This document shows, one piece after another, positions 10,701 through 20,700 of a DNA stretch of 64,000 bases (positions are counted from its first letter, which is position 1; every line of letters begins with the position of its first letter). Position numbers and translations under genes: made by a program. The stretch covers positions 186,001 to 250,000 of the forward strand of contig JAPTJF010000021.1 of the NCBI GenBank assembly GCA_029339195.1. Direction: 5' to 3'. The notes under the pieces are model-generated. The model was not told the DNA's origin and ran no database searches. It saw only the letters and a list, made by a program, of their open reading frames with translations. This DNA is from Micractinium sp. NFX-FRZ. Its lineage: Eukaryota; Chlorophyta; Trebouxiophyceae; Chlorellales; Chlorellaceae.

Positions 10701-12776
10701 AAGGTGCGAGAGTTGTTGGGGTGGCGAGGCAAGTTTTGTGTGCTTTTGGGTGTCATGGGCTGAAGTGGCGGCAGGGCGGCATGATTGCGATGCTGTGGTT
10801 TTTGGGAAGAAGGCAGCCGGCAGCGCATATGAGCCTCACCATGTGAGCCACAAATGCCGCTGGAGAGTTATGCAGAGCTCTGGAGAGGTCTTCCCCCCGT
10901 ATGCCCTGAGGCAGACGCCACTCCCGCCCCTCAGCCCGGCCTGCCCCCACCCGCAACGTCCCCAGCAGGTGTGGGAGGTGAAGAGCAACGAGGCTGGCGT
11001 TGCAGGGGTCCCCAGCAGCACCCTACAGCTGGCTTACTCACTGTTTCCGTTCCACACATGGCCCCCCGCAGGTGTGGGAGGTGAAGAGCAACGAGGTGGA
11101 CATCGCCGTCACCCCCAGCAGCAACAAGGCATTCATCTGGTGGCACGTGCGCGGGGTGCAGAAGGACACGCAGCAGGTAGGTGGGTGGGGTGGTGGCACC
11201 TGAGGGAGGGTGGGGGCTTGTCCCAATCAGGGAGTAAGGGGCGTTCAGGCTCGACAGTGGGCGCCAGTGCAGTGCTTTACTTGGGACGTGGCGGGCATGC
11301 TGGGCCAGGTGTGTGTGTGTGTGAGGGGGGCGGGGGCTTCTTGCATGAAAGAGATTAGTGTACAGGTCAGCAGGCGAGGGCCCAGGCACACTTACCTGTG
11401 CTGCCAGCCCTGGACTGCGCTCCTGTGCCAATGCCCTGTATGCATATAGCCCAATTGCCTCGTGCAAGCAGCATGTGGGTCCCGTTGAGGGGGCGAATGC
11501 AGTGCACAGAGGCATCAGAGCGGGAAGGAGAGGCAGGTACTGCCCCATCTCTCCCTCCTGCTCTGACGCAGCTGCGCCCTGCGTTTGCCCCCTCAACACG
11601 ATCCACTTGCTGGTCGCCCTCCACCCCCTTTCCTGCCCTCAAGCCTACCTACCCGCGCTGGCATGCCATGCCTCACCCCTACCCCACCTGCTCCGACCCG
11701 CTGCCCCATCCCCTCTCTGTCTGCCCTACTGCTGCCACTGCCCCAGGACCAGGTGATGCATGGGCCACACCTGCTCGTGTTCGACCTGCTAACACCGTGC
11801 CCTCCTTTGTGCTCTATTTCCTTTTGCAGGACCAAGTGATGTATGGGCTGAACCTGCTGGTGTTCGACCCCAAGGAAGGGCTCATCACAGGTGGGGCCAT
11901 CACATGGATCCAGCACATGGGGCCATCACATGGGGCCATCATATATGGGGCACTTGAGGGTCAGTTCAATGCCTGCCTGAGGGCGTTGGGCGTACATGCC
12001 AGTCAATGCCGAGACAAGCATCTCAACTGCGTGCTCTCCCCCCCTTCTCCTTCCATGCCTCGCCCCGCCCCCGCCCACGTATCCGCCCCACCTTGTTGGT
12101 TGCGTGCCGCCTGCAGAGGTGGTGGGCTTCCGCCAGCCGCTGCAGTCGGAGCACGCTCACATCTTCAAGGCAAGTGGTCAGGCCTGCATGCATTGCTTAC
12201 GTTCCTTTGTATCAGGATGTATCCACTCACATCACGCCACCTCAGCACCGCCGCCATGTGTGGTCACTCTTGGCGTCCGCAGGCGGGCAGCGACCTGGGG
12301 CTGCATTGGGATGCATCCACTGTAAGCGCCCCACCTCAGTGCTCCCCACATGCTTCCACAATCCAGTCCTCCCGTAGGCCGGAAGGTTCCTGGAGCCGAA
12401 GGCATTCCCTAGCAGTACACCACCTCCGCACCCCCACCGCATGCTTTTTCAATTCAATCTTCACAACATCCTTTCCTCCCGCAGGCAGGAAGCTACCTGG
12501 AGATGAAGGCATTCCCTCAAGCCCCTCTACGCTCGCAGCAAGCCACCTCAGCACCCCCCAAGCATGCCTCTTCAAAACGATTCCCATCATCCTTTCCTCC
12601 TGCAGGCCGGAAGCTACCTGGAGATGAAGGACAAGCAGGGGGAGGCGGCGGGGGCGGCAGGCAGCGGTGGTGGCACCCCCTCTGGCCACGCCGACGCAGA
12701 CACGCAGACCGCCGGCGGGGAGGTGGGCAAGGCGGGGCCCCAGGAGAGGGGGAACCAAACCGAGACGGAGGTCTGA
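7785..12776 (+). CDS. tandem NTF2-like / SnoaL-type domain protein
   Basis: Function unknown. The fold family ranges from small-molecule isomerases to binding scaffolds. Thirteen exons give a 369-aa frame: 7785-7869, 8037-8105, 8604-8665, 8797-8886, 9315-9384, 9556-9644, 9959-10009, 10267-10338, 10572-10703, 11072-11176, 11830-11890, 12117-12169 and 12606-12776. Repeat 1 (about residues 20-160) has FNQDSDGIKALLADDVVQH, GPEQVARFHAK, FFDNYKTKHFPVVRAVNEK and MRIKDIWFLRQLT. Repeat 2 (about 173-312) has EKQVEKMHAAAEAFNEV, SVHGIMSPEAHTVNPIFG, AFIWWHVRG, YGLNLLVFDPKEGLIT and EVVGFRQPLQSEHAHIFK. The tail is hydrophilic (Gly, Thr, Glu). No signal peptide, so probably cytosolic. Exons 2 and 3 need GC donors, so their 3' ends are the weakest part of the model; exon 12 has a good GCAAGT donor. 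Five exons have partial copies in adjacent introns. A TGTAA signal lies at 13057-13061. Confidence 0.75.
8450..9245 (+). repeat. echo copies of exons 3 and 4 of the NTF2-like gene
   Basis: A degenerate copy of the start of exon 3 lies at about 8455-8510 (GCAGGCCACATCTTGAGGG...), ahead of the real exon at 8604. Two degenerate copies of the 3' end of exon 4 with its donor follow it, at about 9081-9125 (encoding TNSAVCLWGDE against TNSAFCLWDDE) and about 9205-9235. The copies do not fit the reading frame of the gene. Confidence 0.7.
10961..11885 (+). repeat. echo copies of exons 10 and 11 of the NTF2-like gene
   Basis: A copy of the acceptor and start of exon 10 lies at 10961-11010 (encoding VWEVKSNE, as in the true exon at 11072). 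A copy of exon 11 starts at 11747 (DQVMHGPHLLVFD) and precedes the true exon at 11830 (DQVMYGLNLLVFD). The copies diverge after 15-25 codons and lack a matching donor. Confidence 0.85.
12235..12640 (+). repeat. four tandem copies of intron 3' end plus start of the last exon
   Basis: Acceptor-plus-exon starts occur at about 12283, 12378, 12486 and 12606, that is 95-121 bp apart. The last three read AGRFLEPKAFP, AGSYLEMKAFP and AGSYLEMKDKQG; the first is more decayed. Each is preceded by the same pyrimidine-rich stretch containing CACCTCAGCACC-like sequence. Only the last opens into the full C-terminal exon. Confidence 0.88.
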
Positions 12777-13174: not shown

Positions 13175-16100
13175 TCAGGTGCTCCCAGTAGGCTCAAGGA
13201 AGGCGCCAGCCGCCATGCCGCCGTTGCGCGCTCGGTCAGAGATCGCTCTGCTGCCAGGCGAAAAGTCCACCCCAACATGCTCCCAGAACTGCTGCAGGCT
13301 GCGGGGCAGGGGTGCGCCGTCACCCCCGCTGCCGCTGCTGCCGCTGCTTCCACTGCTGCCACAGCTGGCGCTGCTTCCGCTGCCACTTTCCACCCTGCAG
13401 CTGCCCTCCCCGCCCAGTGCCGCCGCCACCCGCTGCTGCGAGCGCTGCCGCTGCTGCGCGTCCGGTGGCCGGTCAGCCACGTAAGTGGGCCGGTGCTTGC
13501 GGCTCCAAAGGTGGAAGGCAACTGATTCTGAGGGGGTGAATACGTCCCACCCGGCCTGCCACATGCGCAGCAGCTGCAGCACTTCCTCCCCGAAAAACAG
13601 GCCTGGGAGGTCTGCAGGGTAGGGGGCCTGCACAACAGGGGGCGCGCAGCAGGCATGCAGGCACACTGTGGTGTTTGTGAGTGTGCAGGGCAGGGGCAAG
13701 GTTCGAGGGAGGGGGCACTGCATCCGGCAAGCAGCCCATTCAGAATGCAGCCGCCCCCCCACCACTGCATGCGGGTGTGGCACCACGTCATGTGCAATGG
13801 AACGGCACCATGCAAGAGGCGCACACACGATACGCGGCCAGCTGACGTGGCGGCCCACCCACCTCCTGGATGAGCTGTGACCTGCTGAAGGGCAGGCCTG
13901 CCGGCCAGAAAGCACCAGGCGCCAGCACCACAAGTAACACCCTACCCTTTACCAGCCAGTGTAGCATCTACGCAGTACCCTTAAACAGCCAGTGTAGCAT
14001 CTACGCAGTACCCTTAAACAGCCAGTGAAGCATCGTCCTCACCTCCTGGATAAGCTGCGCTCTGCTGAAGGACAGGCCCGCCGCCCAGAACAGCGCAGGT
14101 GCAGGCACCGCCAGCGGCTCCCGCAGCTTGCGCCCTCGGATGCGCAGCAGCCCGTCTGGCTGCCCCCAGTGGCTGGCGCACAGCACGGCGGGCAGCGGGG
14201 CGGCGGGCAGCACAGCGTCGGGGCCCTCGCCCTGCAGGGTGGTGGAAATGCGAGTGAGGTTGAGGACCGCATGGCGATGAGGGCACTGTGGTAACACTGG
14301 CTAGCTGTCCAAATGGCTAGCTGGCTGGTTGGAACGACAAGAGGGGGAGCAAGGTATGTTTGTTTGCGGCACGCATGCCTGGCCAGGGCGCACCTCGTAG
14401 CCCGGAGGGTAGCAGGACAGCACCACGCGGGGGTGGCCCGCCGCCGCCTCCGCCTGGCACAGCATGCGCAGCAGGGCGTCGTCCCAGCCGGCCACAAAGC
14501 GCATGTGGGAATCGACCTGCACAGGCAACGTGACGATTGGAGAATAGGCACATTGCTCAAACATCCAAACTGTCGCCAAACCTTAGCACAACGACACTTG
14601 CAGTGCATTGAGGTAGGGTGAGGTCGACAGCAGGCAGGCAAGTCCCACCTGCAGGTGGAATTCTTCCCCGTCCCACAGCCGCTGCGCGAGCGCCCGCGCC
14701 TTGCAAGGGCCCGTGGCCTCGCTGGCAGGCAGCACCACCTGCCGCACCTGCAGTGTGTGTGTGTGTGTGTGTGTGTGCAGTGGATGGGCTGCCGAGTGAG
14801 CGCAGCTGCAGGCCGTGCCCCCTTGCCAGACACAGGGGTTGCACAGCACAGCACGCAGACGGTTCTCCACGGCTGCCTCCACCCGATTCACCACGACCTG
14901 CCTCCCCACTGTCCACCGCGTGCCTGTCTGAGGCTCCGGCACAGCCCTGTCCCCCCACCCAATAGCCCAGCCCTAACAGCCCTGCCCTGCCCTGCCCTGT
15001 CCTGCCCTGCCCTGCCTTGCCTGGCCCAGCCAGCGCTGGTCTCCCGCCAGGCGCATCATCCCCGCGTCCATCGGAAGCTCCAGCTGCCACACTATGGCCA
15101 CGCGCACCTGCAAGTATATGGGCAAAATGGACAAGAAGCAATGCGGTCATTCGAGCATGCACTCCTCAGCTGGGCGGCTGATAAACCTGGGCAAAATGCA
15201 GGCAAGCATTGGGTTGGCCGCGGCCCAGCCATGCCCCGCAAGCTGCCATCTGCAAGGCGCTATTGAAAGTGTGGTATCCTCACTCACTCACTCACTCACT
15301 CGCTCAGGGTGAGCTGCTTTGGCAAACAAGTCCCCCAGGGTCCACTGCGCCTCGCTGTCACGGTACGCGGGTATTGAGACGAAGATGCGGCCGGGGGCAG
15401 TGATCATGCAGGCATCGAGCGCTGGCGGGGCCATGTGTTGTTGGTGCTGCTGCTGCCCCTGCTGCTGCTGCTGCCGCTGCTGCTCCGCCTGCTGCGCTGC
15501 GCTTGCAGGCGGTGCGTCAACGGCAGCCGCTGCCAGGGCCGCCGCTGCGGCCTTGACAGCAGGCGGCGGTGCCCTGCTGAACCACACAGTCACTGCATAC
15601 CGCTCTGCATGGGAGGGCAGCACCTCATGAAGCAGCCTGCTATCCATGACAACCAAGCGGCCACCCACAGGGGGCACCACTGTTGCAGGGTGGCCCTCAT
15701 CCAGCCCGCTGCTGATGTGGGAGGCGGGCTGAACGTGCTCTTGCCACTGCTGCTGCTGCTGCTGCCCCTGCTGCTGCCCATGCTGTTGCTGCTGCCCCTG
15801 CTGCTGCTGCCCCTGCTGCTGCTGGCCCAGCTGCGCCACTGGACCACCTGCCCCGGCTGCCTCATCCCTACTGCCACCGCCCTCGTCAGCTGCTTGCGCT
15901 GTTGTCAAGGCTACTGCTGTTGCTGCTGCTGCTGCATCAAGTGTTGATGCTGCTGCTGCTGTTGCTGCACCAGGCGGTGCTGCCCTGGCCAGGCGCAGGT
16001 CTGCTGCTGAGGCGGCACAGGGGTCGCTGCCTGTGGTGCTGTGGTTGTACACGCACAGGCTGCCGCCATGGGAGGCCTCCCAGCCTGCGGGCAGTGGAGG

Positions 16101-17216
16101 CAGGGGGCGTCACCCACCGGTCATGGAAGGTGAGGAACGCTGGCAGCGATCTGCGAGGTCTGGGCAGCTCGGGACTCTTGTGGATTTAGCAACTCTCAAA
16201 AATGAAGCGCATCATCGATCCATTTTGTCTCATGCCAGCAACCTCTCCTCACCTCACCTCCCTGCATGCGCACCTGCAGGCGCAAAAGAACACCACCTGC
16301 CGCTTCCCACCCCGCTCCCCTGCCCCGCCCTCCATCTCCCGCTCCTCCTGCATTCCTCCATGACCAATCCCTTGCATCCCCCCCCGGTCCACACAATCCT
16401 CACCCGGGTTCAGGTACAGGATGGCAGTCACGGAGCGGTAGGGCACACTAGCAGCGGCGTCCCTGTGCCGCACATACCGCGCGCCGCCGCCCGGGTAGCA
16501 CGCCAGCTGCACAGAGGGCCGGCCGCCCACGTCGCACCCCTGCGCCTCCAGCCACGGCCGCAGCGACAGCAGGCGCCGCACAGCTGTCGCCAGCTGGCGG
16601 TGCCCGCCCGCCTCCAGGGTGCCAGGGCTGAGCCACGCCGCACGGTCGCCGCGTGAGGCCCGGTCAGACCACGTGCGCCCCTCCTCGACCTCGCAGGGCG
16701 GCGCGCCTCTCACCATGCCGGCGGCCCAGGCTTGGTCTTGCAGCACCGACCGCGCCTCCCGCTGCGCCGCCTGCACCAAAGGGGGGGCCAAGGTTTTGTG
16801 TGGCATGTTTGCTGAACCTGTAAGCCAGCCAGTCGTACTGCAGGCATACCGGCCCAACACACAGCACCCCAGATTCCTTTGCACACTCCCACCTTGGTCT
16901 CAGTTGGGTTGAGGAAGCCATCAATGACGGCCAGCCCACCGCTGAGCTGGCGCCCCCCCAGCAATGCGGGCGCTGCCGCGCCCTGCCCGCTCCCGCCAGC
17001 TGCATGCGTCTGCTCTTTGCCCTTGCCCGCTGCGGTGCTCCCAGCACCATGGGTGTGGGAGAGGTGGGGGTGGGAGGCAGGTAGAGGCCGCGGGCCGTGG
17101 CCGCCGCTACCGGCAAGGTGCCCCAAGATATTCAACTTGGCCGCATCTGGCAGCAGGGACAGCAGGCGTGGGTCCATATCTGCATTAGAGGGTGGAGTTT
17201 CGAATGCATCAGCCAT
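13175..17216 (-). CDS. fused prolyl 4-hydroxylase (PhyA/PHD2-type) and GlcNAc-transferase (Gnt1-type)
   Basis: Predicted bifunctional cytosolic enzyme: 2-oxoglutarate/Fe(II)/O2-dependent proline hydroxylation followed by GlcNAc transfer to the hydroxyproline. Exons 16893-17216, 16404-16770, 15300-16084, 15021-15107, 14649-14747, 14394-14516, 14043-14231 and 13175-13627 close into 808 aa. Hydroxylase: YVRHRD (H210, D212), TAILYLNPGWEASHGG, GGRLVVMDSRLLHEVLPSHA (H383), RYAVTVWF (R392). The H-x-D pair and the nine-residue H-to-R spacing match human PHD2 (H313, D315, H374, R383). A roughly 90-residue Ala/Gln-rich insert separates D212 from H383. Glycosyltransferase (PF11397/GT60-like): GRIFVSIPAYRD from about residue 463, WTLGDLFAKAAHPER, DSHMRFVAGWDDALL, LSCYPPGYE, LPGLFFGEEV, FHLWSRKHRP. 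No signal peptide or membrane helix. Intron 4 has a GC donor. Dictyostelium has PhyA and Gnt1 as separate proteins acting on Skp1; Skp1 as the target here is inference. Confidence 0.9.
13860..14098 (-). repeat. echo of the 3' end of fusion-gene exon 7, and a 36-bp triplet repeat
   Basis: The intron after exon 7 contains a copy (about 13861-13914) of the last 50 or so bases of exon 7 (14043-14098). On the minus strand the copy still reads FWPAGLPFSRSQLIQE followed by a GTGGGT donor, against FWAAGLSFSRAQLIQE in the exon. Between them, at about 13951-14032, a 36-bp unit with AGCCAGTGTAGCATCTACGC occurs twice in full and once in part. Confidence 0.88.
14753..15303. repeat. simple repeats in introns of the fusion gene
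   Basis: (GT)n at 14753-14777 directly beside the acceptor of exon 5; a CCCTG-type pentamer array at about 14970-15015 beside the GC donor of intron 4; and (ACTC)n at about 15279-15303 that contains the exon 3 donor (GTGAGT on the minus strand), so the donor lies inside a GTGA repeat. Confidence 0.85.
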
Positions 17217-17750: not shown

Positions 17751-20700
17751 ATGAAGCTCACCAGGGCGGAGGCCCGGGACGTGCTGGGCGTGGAGGTGAG
17801 CGCCAGCGGCGCCGCCGCCTGCCGCCGCCGCTGCCGCCGCCCCCTCTGCCCGCCTGCCCGCGCCCTCTTTCGACATGCACTCTACCCTTGGCCGCCCATT
17901 TGCGATTTCGACCCTGACCTTGTACGTATTTCCCATCCTTCGTTGAACGCGCGCTGCCCACGCCTGCCACCCCGCCCCCGCCCCGCCCTTTGCCCTTGTG
18001 CCCCACCCGTCCCGCTGCTCCCGCCCCGCAGGAGGGCGCCAGCCATGCGGTGCTCAAAAAGTCGTTCTTCAAGCTCAGCAAGGAGTGGCATCCGGACAAG
18101 GTGGATGATGAGAAGAAGGACGAGGCGACAGCGATGTTCCAGAAGATCAATGCGGCCTACCAGGTATGTGTGGGGTGCTGGGTGCTGGGTGAGGCGTGTC
18201 TACCGCGTGCCTTGGAGGTAAGTTCGGCAATGGCTGGGGGCTGGGAGAGGCGAATTGGCTGATGGCGTTGAAGTACAGCTGGATGCGCGGAGGAGGTATG
18301 GATGGCTAGGGCTGGATCGCTTGAAGGCAGGTGCTGGGAGCACGGCGGGGGGCAGGCGCGTTGCAAGCCCACTGTGTCTTACTGATTGCACGCTCCCGTC
18401 CTGCGCCCGGCATGTCAGTTCCCTATCACACTTGGTGCCAGCGCTGGGGCAGCGGGCTGGTTCCTAAGATCAGGAGACGCGGCCCCTGCGGCCCACGATC
18501 TGCCTCTCTGCCGTGCGCACCCCTCTTCCTTGCGCGTACCACTGCCACTTGCCCCCTGCCCCAGCAGCGGCGCCATGAGAGGAGTGATTGAGGCCAACAG
18601 GCGGATTCCGTAGCTGCACGCCTCGCCACCTGGTTTACCCTGTCTTGCTCTGTGCCGCTCTCTACCGCCGCCCGCAGAAGCTGCTGAACGACGAGAGCGA
18701 CGATGAGGAGGAGGTGGACACATTCAGCGATGACGAGGACATGATGCCGCCAAACATTGACATCCTGTTTGAGTTCTTCAGATACATGTGAGGCGGGGCA
18801 GGATGTGATGCGGGCGGGACCAGAACGCCGATGGGCTCAGACTGGTGGGCTCCCTGGCACCTGTCCGCTGCCGCCACCGCCCACCCCTGTTGTGGCCCAC
18901 CTGCCCCTTGTGGTAAACCCCACCCTGGGAACGAGATGGTGCAGGTGGAGCAGGATCAGCAGCTGGCCACCCTCCGATACCTATTCCGTGCAAGATCCGC
19001 GCCGCCCTTGTGCCCCTCTCCCCCGGCCCTCATCCTCTGCATGTCAATCTGTGCCCGTGTGTCTGTGTTGTTTTGCAGGGAGGAGAAGATGCGGGCTGAG
19101 CGTGAGAGGCGTCGCTCCCGCGGCGGCCGCAGCACGGTTGGCGGCATGTTTGGCGGGCCGGGCGGCCGGCCAGGCATCATGGTCGGGCCGGGCGGCATCC
19201 ACATCGTGTTTGGGCCGCCGCCGGGGGCGGGAGGCTTCGGCGGCGGCATGGGCGGCTTTGGATCGTTCATGGGGTGAGAGCAGAGGGGTCTGAGGCATTG
19301 TTTATAGTCATGGGGAGTGTGTTGTAAAAAAGCAAGGTGGCGGTTTTGGGCGGTGCAGGGGCCGACTTGGGCGGGTTTGGGACATTCATTCGGGTAGGGC
19401 AGCAAGTGCGGCGTGTGGGCAGGGGTGGTGGGTAGCATGGGTGCAGGGGTGCCGCTGGCACCATGCTGATTAAATTGAGGGGAATAGGAGTGCCTGCTGC
19501 TTGGCCGCTCACCCTGCCTTCCACCCCTTCCTACCTGCAGCCCGGAGGGCGGCGGCTACGGCGGCGGCGGCGGCGGCGGCTATGGCGGAGGCGGGCGCAG
19601 CAAGCCCCACCAGCCGCGCGGCGGCAACCAGCGCTCGCGTTACTATGGTGCGCAGCGCAGCGCACCACCTCACCCGGCTTGCCCTCTGTATGCTTGCCAC
19701 CTGCTTGCCGGCCTGCGTGCTGCCGCAGCTGCCCGACTTCCCCGCACACTTGGGTATGCCAGTGACGCCGTTGTGTGTTTCAGCAGAACCCGCTTGCTCC
19801 CCCTGGCGCACCGCTGCCGACCTTGTTTGCTGTGAAGAGCGCGTCAAACTAGCACCCCATCAGTCCCTGCCCCTGCGCAACCTCCGCTCACCTCTCCCTC
19901 CCACCCTCTGTTATTACCTCAATACCTGCAGAGAGCAATGAAGATGATGACGACTACTCCATTCGCACTCTACTCCTGCGCGTTGTTACCCCGATTGTTT
20001 CTACGTTCATCAATTTGCAGAGAGCGACGATGATGACGATGACTACTCGATTAGCAGCGAGGACGACGACGAGTACGAGCGCCGGCAGGAGCGCATGTTC
20101 ATGTGAGCACGGGGGAGTGCAGTGGGCAGGAGTGGGGAGTGGAGTGGGCACCTTGGGTGCGACGCTTCGCATTCGAACGGTTGCCTGCCAGGAGGCACGC
20201 TCATGTGAGCACAGCCTGGCAGCGCAAGTCTTGCTGCGACCGGCAGTGTGCTTCTATCGGTGTGATCGGATCTCATGAGGAAATGGGGGCCTGCGCGTTG
20301 ATGTCTGCGCAGGGGCAAGGCGGGGTTGAGCGGGAGCGCACACGTGCTCTTCGCTGCACGTGTCGGGTAACAAAGCGCTGCCATGCCATCACTGCCCATC
20401 GACGCCCCACCCACCCACGTGTGCTCACCCCTGCTCCCTGCTCCCTGCAGGCGCATGAAGGCGGAGGAGCGCGCGGAGGAGCAGGACCGCGTGCGCCACC
20501 AGGTGGGTGGCAGCCTGCCCGGGTTGCAGCCTGCCATGGGCCCGCATCCTGTGATGTACAGGAGACCTTGTGTGACATATCAGTGACTTGCCGTTGGTGG
20601 GTGGCAGCCTGCCAGCACACCACTCAGGTGGAAGTCATGGGCATGGGGTACGCGTCATGTATGACAAGGCAGCGGCTTGCCGTTGGTGGGTGCACCGTCT

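What the first reader, a model, noticed from the sequence alone, without database searches (positions are those of the whole stretch)
13175..17216. One polypeptide joins a PHD2/PhyA-type prolyl hydroxylase and a Gnt1-type GlcNAc-transferase
Eight exons close into a single 808-aa frame with an intact hydroxylase (H210, D212, H383, R392; H-to-R spacing as in PHD2) followed by an intact PF11397-type glycosyltransferase (FVSIPAYRD, DSHMRF, FFGEE, FHLWSRKHRP). Exon 3 carries the end of one domain and the start of the other with no stop between. In Dictyostelium the equivalent enzymes act in sequence on one Skp1 proline and are separate genes. A natural fusion in an alga implies a channelled, possibly O2-responsive, hydroxylation-glycosylation of a cytosolic target such as Skp1. 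I cannot rule out that such fusions are already known in other algae or protists.
Basis: partly seen in the sequence, partly recalled or inferred. Interest (0 to 1): 0.87.

Follow-up and report, generated by a model that had tools for sequence, protein, structure and literature searches.

The report
Algal hydroxylase–sugar-transferase fusion enzyme
A green alga carries one gene for a two-in-one enzyme that probably hydroxylates a single proline on the protein-degradation adaptor Skp1 and then caps it with a sugar; the fusion is real, but the same kind of fused enzyme is already known in other single-celled eukaryotes and is common in green algae.

Summary
Eight minus-strand exons (17216-13175) splice into one frame of 808 aa; one donor is GC-AG. 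About residues 90-403 are a PHD2/PhyA-type prolyl 4-hydroxylase with all five catalytic positions; about 463-780 are a PF11397 (GT60, Gnt1-type) GlcNAc-transferase. Exon 3 carries the join without a stop. In its 66-Mb genome, exon-wise searches found no other GT60 gene and no other PhyA-like gene. The host Skp1 keeps the acceptor proline, NDFTPEE.

It is not new in kind. Of 27 homologues in the first search, 25 carry both domains, mostly from green or streptophyte algae. [quoted passage not shown] The window gene is a new member of that kind.

Extras: a roughly 110-aa Q/A-rich insertion in the hydroxylase of 4 Chlorellaceae fusions (longest here); a conserved N-terminal helix-Leu-Pro-helix element of unknown role; reversed domain order in a dinoflagellate. 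Skp1 as target and channelling remain inferred.

The parts
16893..17216 (-). exon 1 (aa 1-108): N-terminal helix-LP-helix element (MDPRLLSLLPDAAKLNILGHL, aa 14-34), low-complexity stretch, start of hydroxylase; alternative start Met14 at 17177-17175
16404..16770 (-). exon 2 (aa 109-230): hydroxylase core with HRD iron-binding motif (H210 at 16467-16465, D212 at 16461-16459) and Y227 (16416-16414)
15300..16084 (-). exon 3 (aa 231-492): rest of hydroxylase (H383 at 15629-15627, R392 at 15602-15600), linker and start of glycosyltransferase in one frame without a stop
15702..16034 (-). Q/A-rich insertion (about aa 248-358) between the hydroxylase stretches GGSLCVY and HPATVVPPVGGRLVV, by alignment at the place of the betaIV-betaV loop of DdPhyA
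15390..15566 (-). interdomain linker (about aa 404-462), A- and Q-rich
15021..15107 (-). exon 4 (GT60 domain); its donor is GC-AG
14649..14747 (-). exon 5 (GT60 domain, ATGPCKAR)
14394..14516 (-). exon 6 (GT60 domain, DSHMRF at aa 556-561)
14043..14231 (-). exon 7 (GT60 domain)
13175..13627 (-). exon 8 (GT60 domain end, FFGEE at 13597-13583, FHLWSRKHRP; stop codon 13177-13175)

Best explanation
The locus encodes one bifunctional enzyme, probably cytosolic, the green-algal form of PhyA-Gnt1. Its N-terminal half uses Fe(II), 2-oxoglutarate and O2 to make 4-hydroxyproline at the acceptor proline in the C-terminal tail of Skp1 (NDFTPEEEEE). Its C-terminal GT60 half then puts alpha-GlcNAc on that hydroxyproline, which in Dictyostelium and Toxoplasma affects Skp1 dimerisation and F-box-protein binding and so makes SCF ubiquitin ligases respond to oxygen. 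Shown here: gene structure, domain identity, conserved catalytic residues, no second gene found for either activity, presence of the acceptor proline. Inferred from the family: Skp1 as target, order of the two steps, cytosolic location. Not shown: transfer of the intermediate between the two sites, O2 responsiveness in the alga, whether further sugars are added.
For: Single frame; Pfam PF13640 and PF11397; PHD1, a HIF prolyl hydroxylase (6ey1) and PHD2 as best sequence matches in the PDB, DdPhyA 6T8M also matched at E 1.1e-6; AlphaFold model of the Coccomyxa orthologue P0006 (mean pLDDT 88, pTM 0.65) matches Pseudomonas P4H and PHD2; iron ligands, 2OG-binding Arg and Tyr, and the D, S, H, R and two E positions of the transferase kept in all 46 hand-picked aligned fusions; relatives include a Globisporangium (formerly Pythium, recalled) ultimum fusion, P0080, which the window protein matches over both domains; no other GT60 exon found in the genome, and no other hydroxylase exon with E below 0.01 for a PhyA-type query; host Skp1 ends NIENDFTPEE|EEEVRRENQWAFE; no strongly hydrophobic segment (highest 19-residue Kyte-Doolittle mean 1.33, in Ala-rich stretches); both half-trees place it with the Micractinium and Chlorella fusions. 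Alpha linkage and dependence of Gnt1 on PhyA: passages of PMC6939170.
Against: No transcript or activity from this organism was seen. The acceptor proline is also kept in plant Skp1 proteins that have no such enzyme (recalled), so it is weak support. The long low-complexity insertion in the hydroxylase could impair it. Genome searches are exon by exon and give lower bounds; a PF13640 search listed six other oxygenase places and missed this gene. PMC8724618 says algae hold up to four GT60 genes, some of them Golgi enzymes (passage), so a GT60 domain alone does not name the target. An internal Met (about aa 447) could start a free Gnt1 from a second promoter; nothing here excludes that.
Confidence: 0.82

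Rival explanations
1. The enzyme is a real hydroxylase-GlcNAc-transferase fusion, but in green algae it acts mainly on another cytosolic protein than Skp1.
For: P4H-family enzymes have changed targets (HIF-alpha in animals, EF-Tu in bacteria: PMC6437050 section 6); the long Q/A-rich insertion could change substrate choice; no algal modification data turned up in the paper searches (capped lists).
Against: The hydroxylase groups with other hydroxylase-GT60 fusions; the transferase groups with the same fusions, and the dictyostelid GlcNAc-transferases in that tree start directly at the catalytic domain, though I did not establish that those rows are the Skp1 enzyme; the host Skp1 keeps the acceptor site.
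Confidence: 0.12
2. Gene-model artefact: two adjacent genes, PhyA-like and Gnt1-like, wrongly joined.
For: Model built from DNA only; internal Met at about aa 447 before the transferase; some public models of relatives look truncated.
Against: The join lies inside one exon without a stop; annotations from many lineages give the same fusion; the Tetraselmis astigmatica fusion P0011 comes from an MMETSP transcriptome.
Confidence: 0.03
3. The gene is expressed but one half is inactive, for example a hydroxylase disabled by the Q/A insertion.
For: Longest HxD-H spacing (173) of the 46 aligned fusions.
Against: The catalytic residues examined are kept; the insertion lies at a loop that is disordered in the DdPhyA structure; three related Chlorellaceae fusions have spacings of 137-153.
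Confidence: 0.05

Closest known systems
[quoted passage not shown] title seen in reference lists only)
   Same: Two domains of the same kinds; the Globisporangium ultimum protein P0080, probably the same enzyme, has them in the same order and aligns over both halves (28-43% identity in three pieces)
   Different: Green alga instead of oomycete; Q/A-rich insertion in the hydroxylase and a longer linker; activity not tested
Green-algal fusions in public databases (Micractinium P0001, Chlorella vulgaris P0002, Parachlorella P0003, Coccomyxa P0006, Trebouxia P0009, Volvox P0018, Tetraselmis P0011, Klebsormidium P0016)
   Same: Same architecture; 83% identity to P0001 over the transferase, 58% over the N-terminal part
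   Different: Length of insertion and linker; I saw only sequence records, no experimental work on them
Dictyostelium PhyA and Gnt1
   Same: Same two chemical steps (recalled and PMC7864055, PMC6939170 passages); same kind of active site as DdPhyA structure 6T8M; 36% identity of the transferase to a Dictyostelium firmibasis protein
   Different: Separate genes in Dictyostelium (recalled; the dictyostelid transferases found are free proteins)
Human PHD2 (EGLN1)
   Same: Sequence and fold of the hydroxylase half
   Different: PHD2 acts on HIF-alpha and has no transferase domain (recalled)

Membership tests
PhyA/PHD-type prolyl 4-hydroxylase | HxD...H iron ligands, Arg 9-10 residues after the distal His, and the 2OG-binding Tyr | tested here: met
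   H210, D212, H383, R392, Y227; the same in all 46 aligned fusions; DdPhyA residues from PMC7864055 section 8, part 1
PhyA/PHD-type prolyl 4-hydroxylase | PHD2-like double-stranded beta-helix fold | tested here: met
   Orthologue P0006 model matches 4iw3 and PHD2 chains; the window protein itself was not folded
PhyA/PHD-type prolyl 4-hydroxylase | hydroxylates the Skp1 proline | not testable with these tools
   Acceptor proline present in the host Skp1; activity unknown
GT60 (PF11397) Skp1-hydroxyproline GlcNAc-transferase | PF11397 match over the curated cut-off | tested here: met
   208.1 bits against cut-off 21
GT60 (PF11397) Skp1-hydroxyproline GlcNAc-transferase | conserved DSH-R and GEE motifs | tested here: met
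   46 of 46 for D, S, H, R and both E; 45 of 46 for the G
GT60 (PF11397) Skp1-hydroxyproline GlcNAc-transferase | cytosolic, without signal anchor | tested here: inconclusive
   No strongly hydrophobic 19-residue segment (maximum 1.33); no dedicated predictor was run
GT60 (PF11397) Skp1-hydroxyproline GlcNAc-transferase | transfers alpha-GlcNAc to hydroxyproline of Skp1 | not testable with these tools
   No activity data for this organism
bifunctional PhyA-Gnt1 fusion | both domains in one polypeptide, hydroxylase first | tested here: met
Skp1 modification pathway beyond GlcNAc (PgtA, Glt1, Gat1, AgtA) | downstream glycosyltransferases in the same genome | not tested
   No reference sequence or specific family model was at hand
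F-box protein | F-box domain at the N-terminus | tested here: not met
   F-box-clan models hit 2 of 33 N-terminal segments, best E 0.027, under the curated cut-off; eight other families hit one segment each at E 0.03-0.22; 0 of 33 class-preserving shuffles hit F-box models, but two unrelated families hit one each at E 0.021 and 0.12; no hit for the window segment. A 30-position profile search of the PDB listed 7 sequences up to E 10, none an F-box protein

The most novel reading that the evidence does not exclude
The hydroxylase half of these enzymes carries a conserved N-terminal helix-Leu-Pro-helix element that moves with it: it heads the protein in green algae, Naegleria and (as a variant) oomycetes, and it sits in the middle, just before the hydroxylase, in dinoflagellate-type proteins with the reversed order transferase-hydroxylase. 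On this reading it is a docking hook for the substrate (Skp1, or ubiquitin), and the two enzymes were joined at least twice in opposite order because holding the hydroxylated intermediate is under selection.
Probability: 0.15. Interest if true: 0.5.

Novelty: new member of a known kind. Interest (0 to 1): 0.27.

Why it matters
It suggests that an oxygen-dependent hydroxylation-glycosylation step, probably aimed at Skp1, operates in green algae, whose cells swing between high O2 in light and low O2 in the dark, and that there the first two steps sit in one gene. If no second copy exists, a single gene removal would abolish both steps, which makes the pathway simple to test in laboratory algae. 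As a discovery it is modest, because the fusion is already described elsewhere.

Tried and rejected
F-box idea for the N-terminal motif: rejected as a membership claim. UBM (ubiquitin-binding region) matched 1 of 33 segments at E 0.043, no better than unrelated families. The Pfam control A6 was one class-preserving shuffle of the 33 segments; it had no F-box hit but two unrelated hits. The motif pattern was found in the first 60 residues of 50 of 62 hydroxylase-bearing proteins, against a mean of 3.6 (maximum 9) of 62 in 200 shuffles and 28 of 1119 other windows of the same proteins. The pattern was written after seeing these sequences, and 17 of the 50 share one identical oomycete 13-mer, so this shows conservation, not function. 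The 12 without it are P0008, P0048, P0094 and nine unnamed metagenome proteins; some of these may have incomplete N-termini.

Viral counterpart: in IMG/VR 160 stretches encode a PF11397 relative and the best 80 were fetched; none of the 80 holds both domains in one open frame. The hydroxylase model used there was built from ten PhyA-type sequences, so distant oxygenases can be missed.

Single ancient fusion: the transferase tree needs 7 changes of the forward-fusion label and the hydroxylase tree 4; starred branches force 3 in each. Some 'solo' rows are metagenome or partial models and may be exon fragments, so the count cannot separate one fusion with losses from several fusions. Rows were hand-picked: 65 for the first tree and 54 for the second, out of 179 fetched proteins plus the window; near-copies and partial models were left out. 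The 46 rows were hand-picked in the same way.

Own-genome search with PF13640 listed 6 matches and missed the window gene, so that family is insensitive here; a protein query replaced it.

F-box genes of the host: a PF12937 search listed 37 places; it was meant for an F-box model of the host's own and was not used further.

Table S2 of PMC6437050, which concerns the fused genes, could not be seen (no supplement look-ups allowed); whether green algae are named there is unknown. Paper searches. No title in their capped lists is on an algal PhyA-Gnt1 fusion; only open-licence papers are held.
Full report
Gene structure. The minus strand from 17216 to 13175 holds eight exons that join in frame to 808 aa. 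Six introns are GT-AG and one, 15020-14748, is GC-AG with a CAG|GCAAGG donor. Exon 3 (16084-15300) holds the end of the hydroxylase, the linker and the start of the transferase, with no stop. Three close relatives begin at the residue that corresponds to Met14, so the first 13 residues may not be translated. The neighbouring gene on the plus strand has an ATG at 17751 and encodes a J-domain (DnaJ, E 7.7e-14 for hand-joined exons); the gene on the other side runs towards this one and appears to end at 12776.

What the protein is. Pfam gives PF11397 (best stretch 520-780, E 3.5e-61, two stretches) and PF13640 (best stretch 195-247, E 1.8e-15, two stretches). The closest solved sequences are PHD1 (Egl nine homolog 2), a HIF prolyl hydroxylase (6ey1, Trichoplax) and PHD2; 6T8M is listed too and is DdPhyA according to PMC7864055. 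All five catalytic positions of the hydroxylase, and the D, S, H, R and two E positions of the transferase, are the same in all 46 fusions that I picked and aligned, the window included. Its best structural matches are the Pseudomonas prolyl hydroxylase 4iw3 and PHD2. The 50 rows listed, of 1885 matches, all concern the hydroxylase half, so the fold of the transferase half was not examined.

How common the fusion is. The first search returned 27 proteins, of which 25 carry both domains by their precomputed Pfam labels; P0020 and P0025 carry PF11397 alone, and P0020 still has a partial hydroxylase by my own model. The named ones are green algae of several classes, the streptophytes Klebsormidium and Closterium, the oomycete Achlya and Naegleria. 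A profile search with the transferase half found 1093 proteins, of which the best 120 were listed; these add many oomycetes, Guillardia, Chrysoparadoxa and the dinoflagellate Effrenium, and free transferases in dictyostelids and, by its transcript name, Physarum. Some PF11397-only rows from metagenomes may be exon fragments. The third search, with the hydroxylase half, gave 42 proteins, many of them named 'SM-20-related' and probably bacterial, besides a partial Heterosigma fusion. The Tetraselmis astigmatica fusion P0011 comes from a transcriptome.

Trees. Both halves of the window protein fall with the Micractinium and Chlorella fusions inside a larger supported set of mainly green algae (SH-aLRT 95 for the transferase set of 15 rows, which also holds Guillardia and Klebsormidium; 98 for the hydroxylase set of 15 rows; quick method). 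This fits vertical inheritance in algae. The trees do not settle whether all fusions come from one event.

Two variants worth noting. First, proteins P0098 (metagenome) and P0107 (Effrenium voratum) have the order transferase-hydroxylase; P0107 looks truncated at its C-terminal end. Second, the spacing from HxD to the distal His is 58-82 residues in 42 of 46 aligned fusions and 137-173 in four Chlorellaceae-type ones (Micractinium, Chlorella vulgaris, Parachlorella and the window), with 173 in the window. The extra sequence is Q- and A-rich and lies, by alignment, where DdPhyA has its disordered betaIV-betaV loop. [quoted passage not shown]

N-terminal element. Fusions from algae, Naegleria and oomycetes begin with a short conserved stretch of the form LxxLPxxxxxxILxxL (in most oomycetes LSP in place of LP); in the AlphaFold model it forms two helices around Leu-Pro (residues 5-13 and 17-32; block pLDDT 66, 88, 82), followed by disorder. 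In the reversed proteins a similar stretch stands just before the hydroxylase. It resembles helix 1 of the F-box, but tests do not support F-box membership. It is absent from 12 of 62 examined N-termini. Its role is open.

Host context. In the 66-Mb assembly of 838 contigs the PF11397 search found three places, all exons of this gene, and a hydroxylase query found only exons of this gene with E below 0.01. Other 2OG-oxygenase exons exist: a PF13640 search listed six places elsewhere and missed this gene. One Skp1 gene has the C-terminal exons ...NIENDFTPEE | EEEVRRENQWAFE, stop; a second, weaker PF01466 match was not read. Searches are exon by exon and give lower bounds.

What is known. [quoted passage not shown] That paper is not held. 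PMC3515798, passages: genomes of protist groups including green algae (Chlamydomonas) harbour Skp1 pathway-like genes. Passages of PMC7864055, PMC9485057 and PMC10539598 mention Skp1 modification in Pythium ultimum. Passages of PMC11570480 and PMC12101541 describe effects on F-box-protein binding and Skp1 dimerisation.

Verdict. The finding is correct as an observation and largely right in its reading, but the fused enzyme is a new member of a known kind. Interest is modest; the conserved N-terminal element and the reversed fusions are the parts that might surprise a specialist.

Noticed in passing
L046 4366-5864, L047 2115-3613, L058 1-1322, L059 437-1959, L079 2277-3739 (IMG/VR contigs): In 5 of 80 viral loci a 2OG-Fe(II) oxygenase-like frame lies directly before, and abuts or overlaps, a GT60-like frame on the same strand (L046 and L047 may be the same virus; in a sixth locus, L024, the oxygenase lies about 2.8 kb away). 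The frame of L079 matches PF13640 at E 8.1e-18. Possibly a phage two-gene oxygenase-glycosyltransferase cassette; target unknown.
   Followed up: partly
P0028, P0030, P0031 and similar: Proteins of about 640-660 aa, mostly from metagenomes and some named as bacterial or archaeal, consist of two GT60-like domains in tandem.
   Followed up: no
P0098, P0107: Dinoflagellate-type proteins carry the reversed order GT60 then hydroxylase, with a stretch like the N-terminal motif retained between them.
   Followed up: partly
window 17751-18164: A divergently transcribed J-domain gene shares an upstream region of about 530 bp with the fusion gene.
   Followed up: no
window 11800-12776, + strand: Convergent neighbour gene; a hand-joined piece of 155 aa had no Pfam match at E 0.01.
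   Followed up: no
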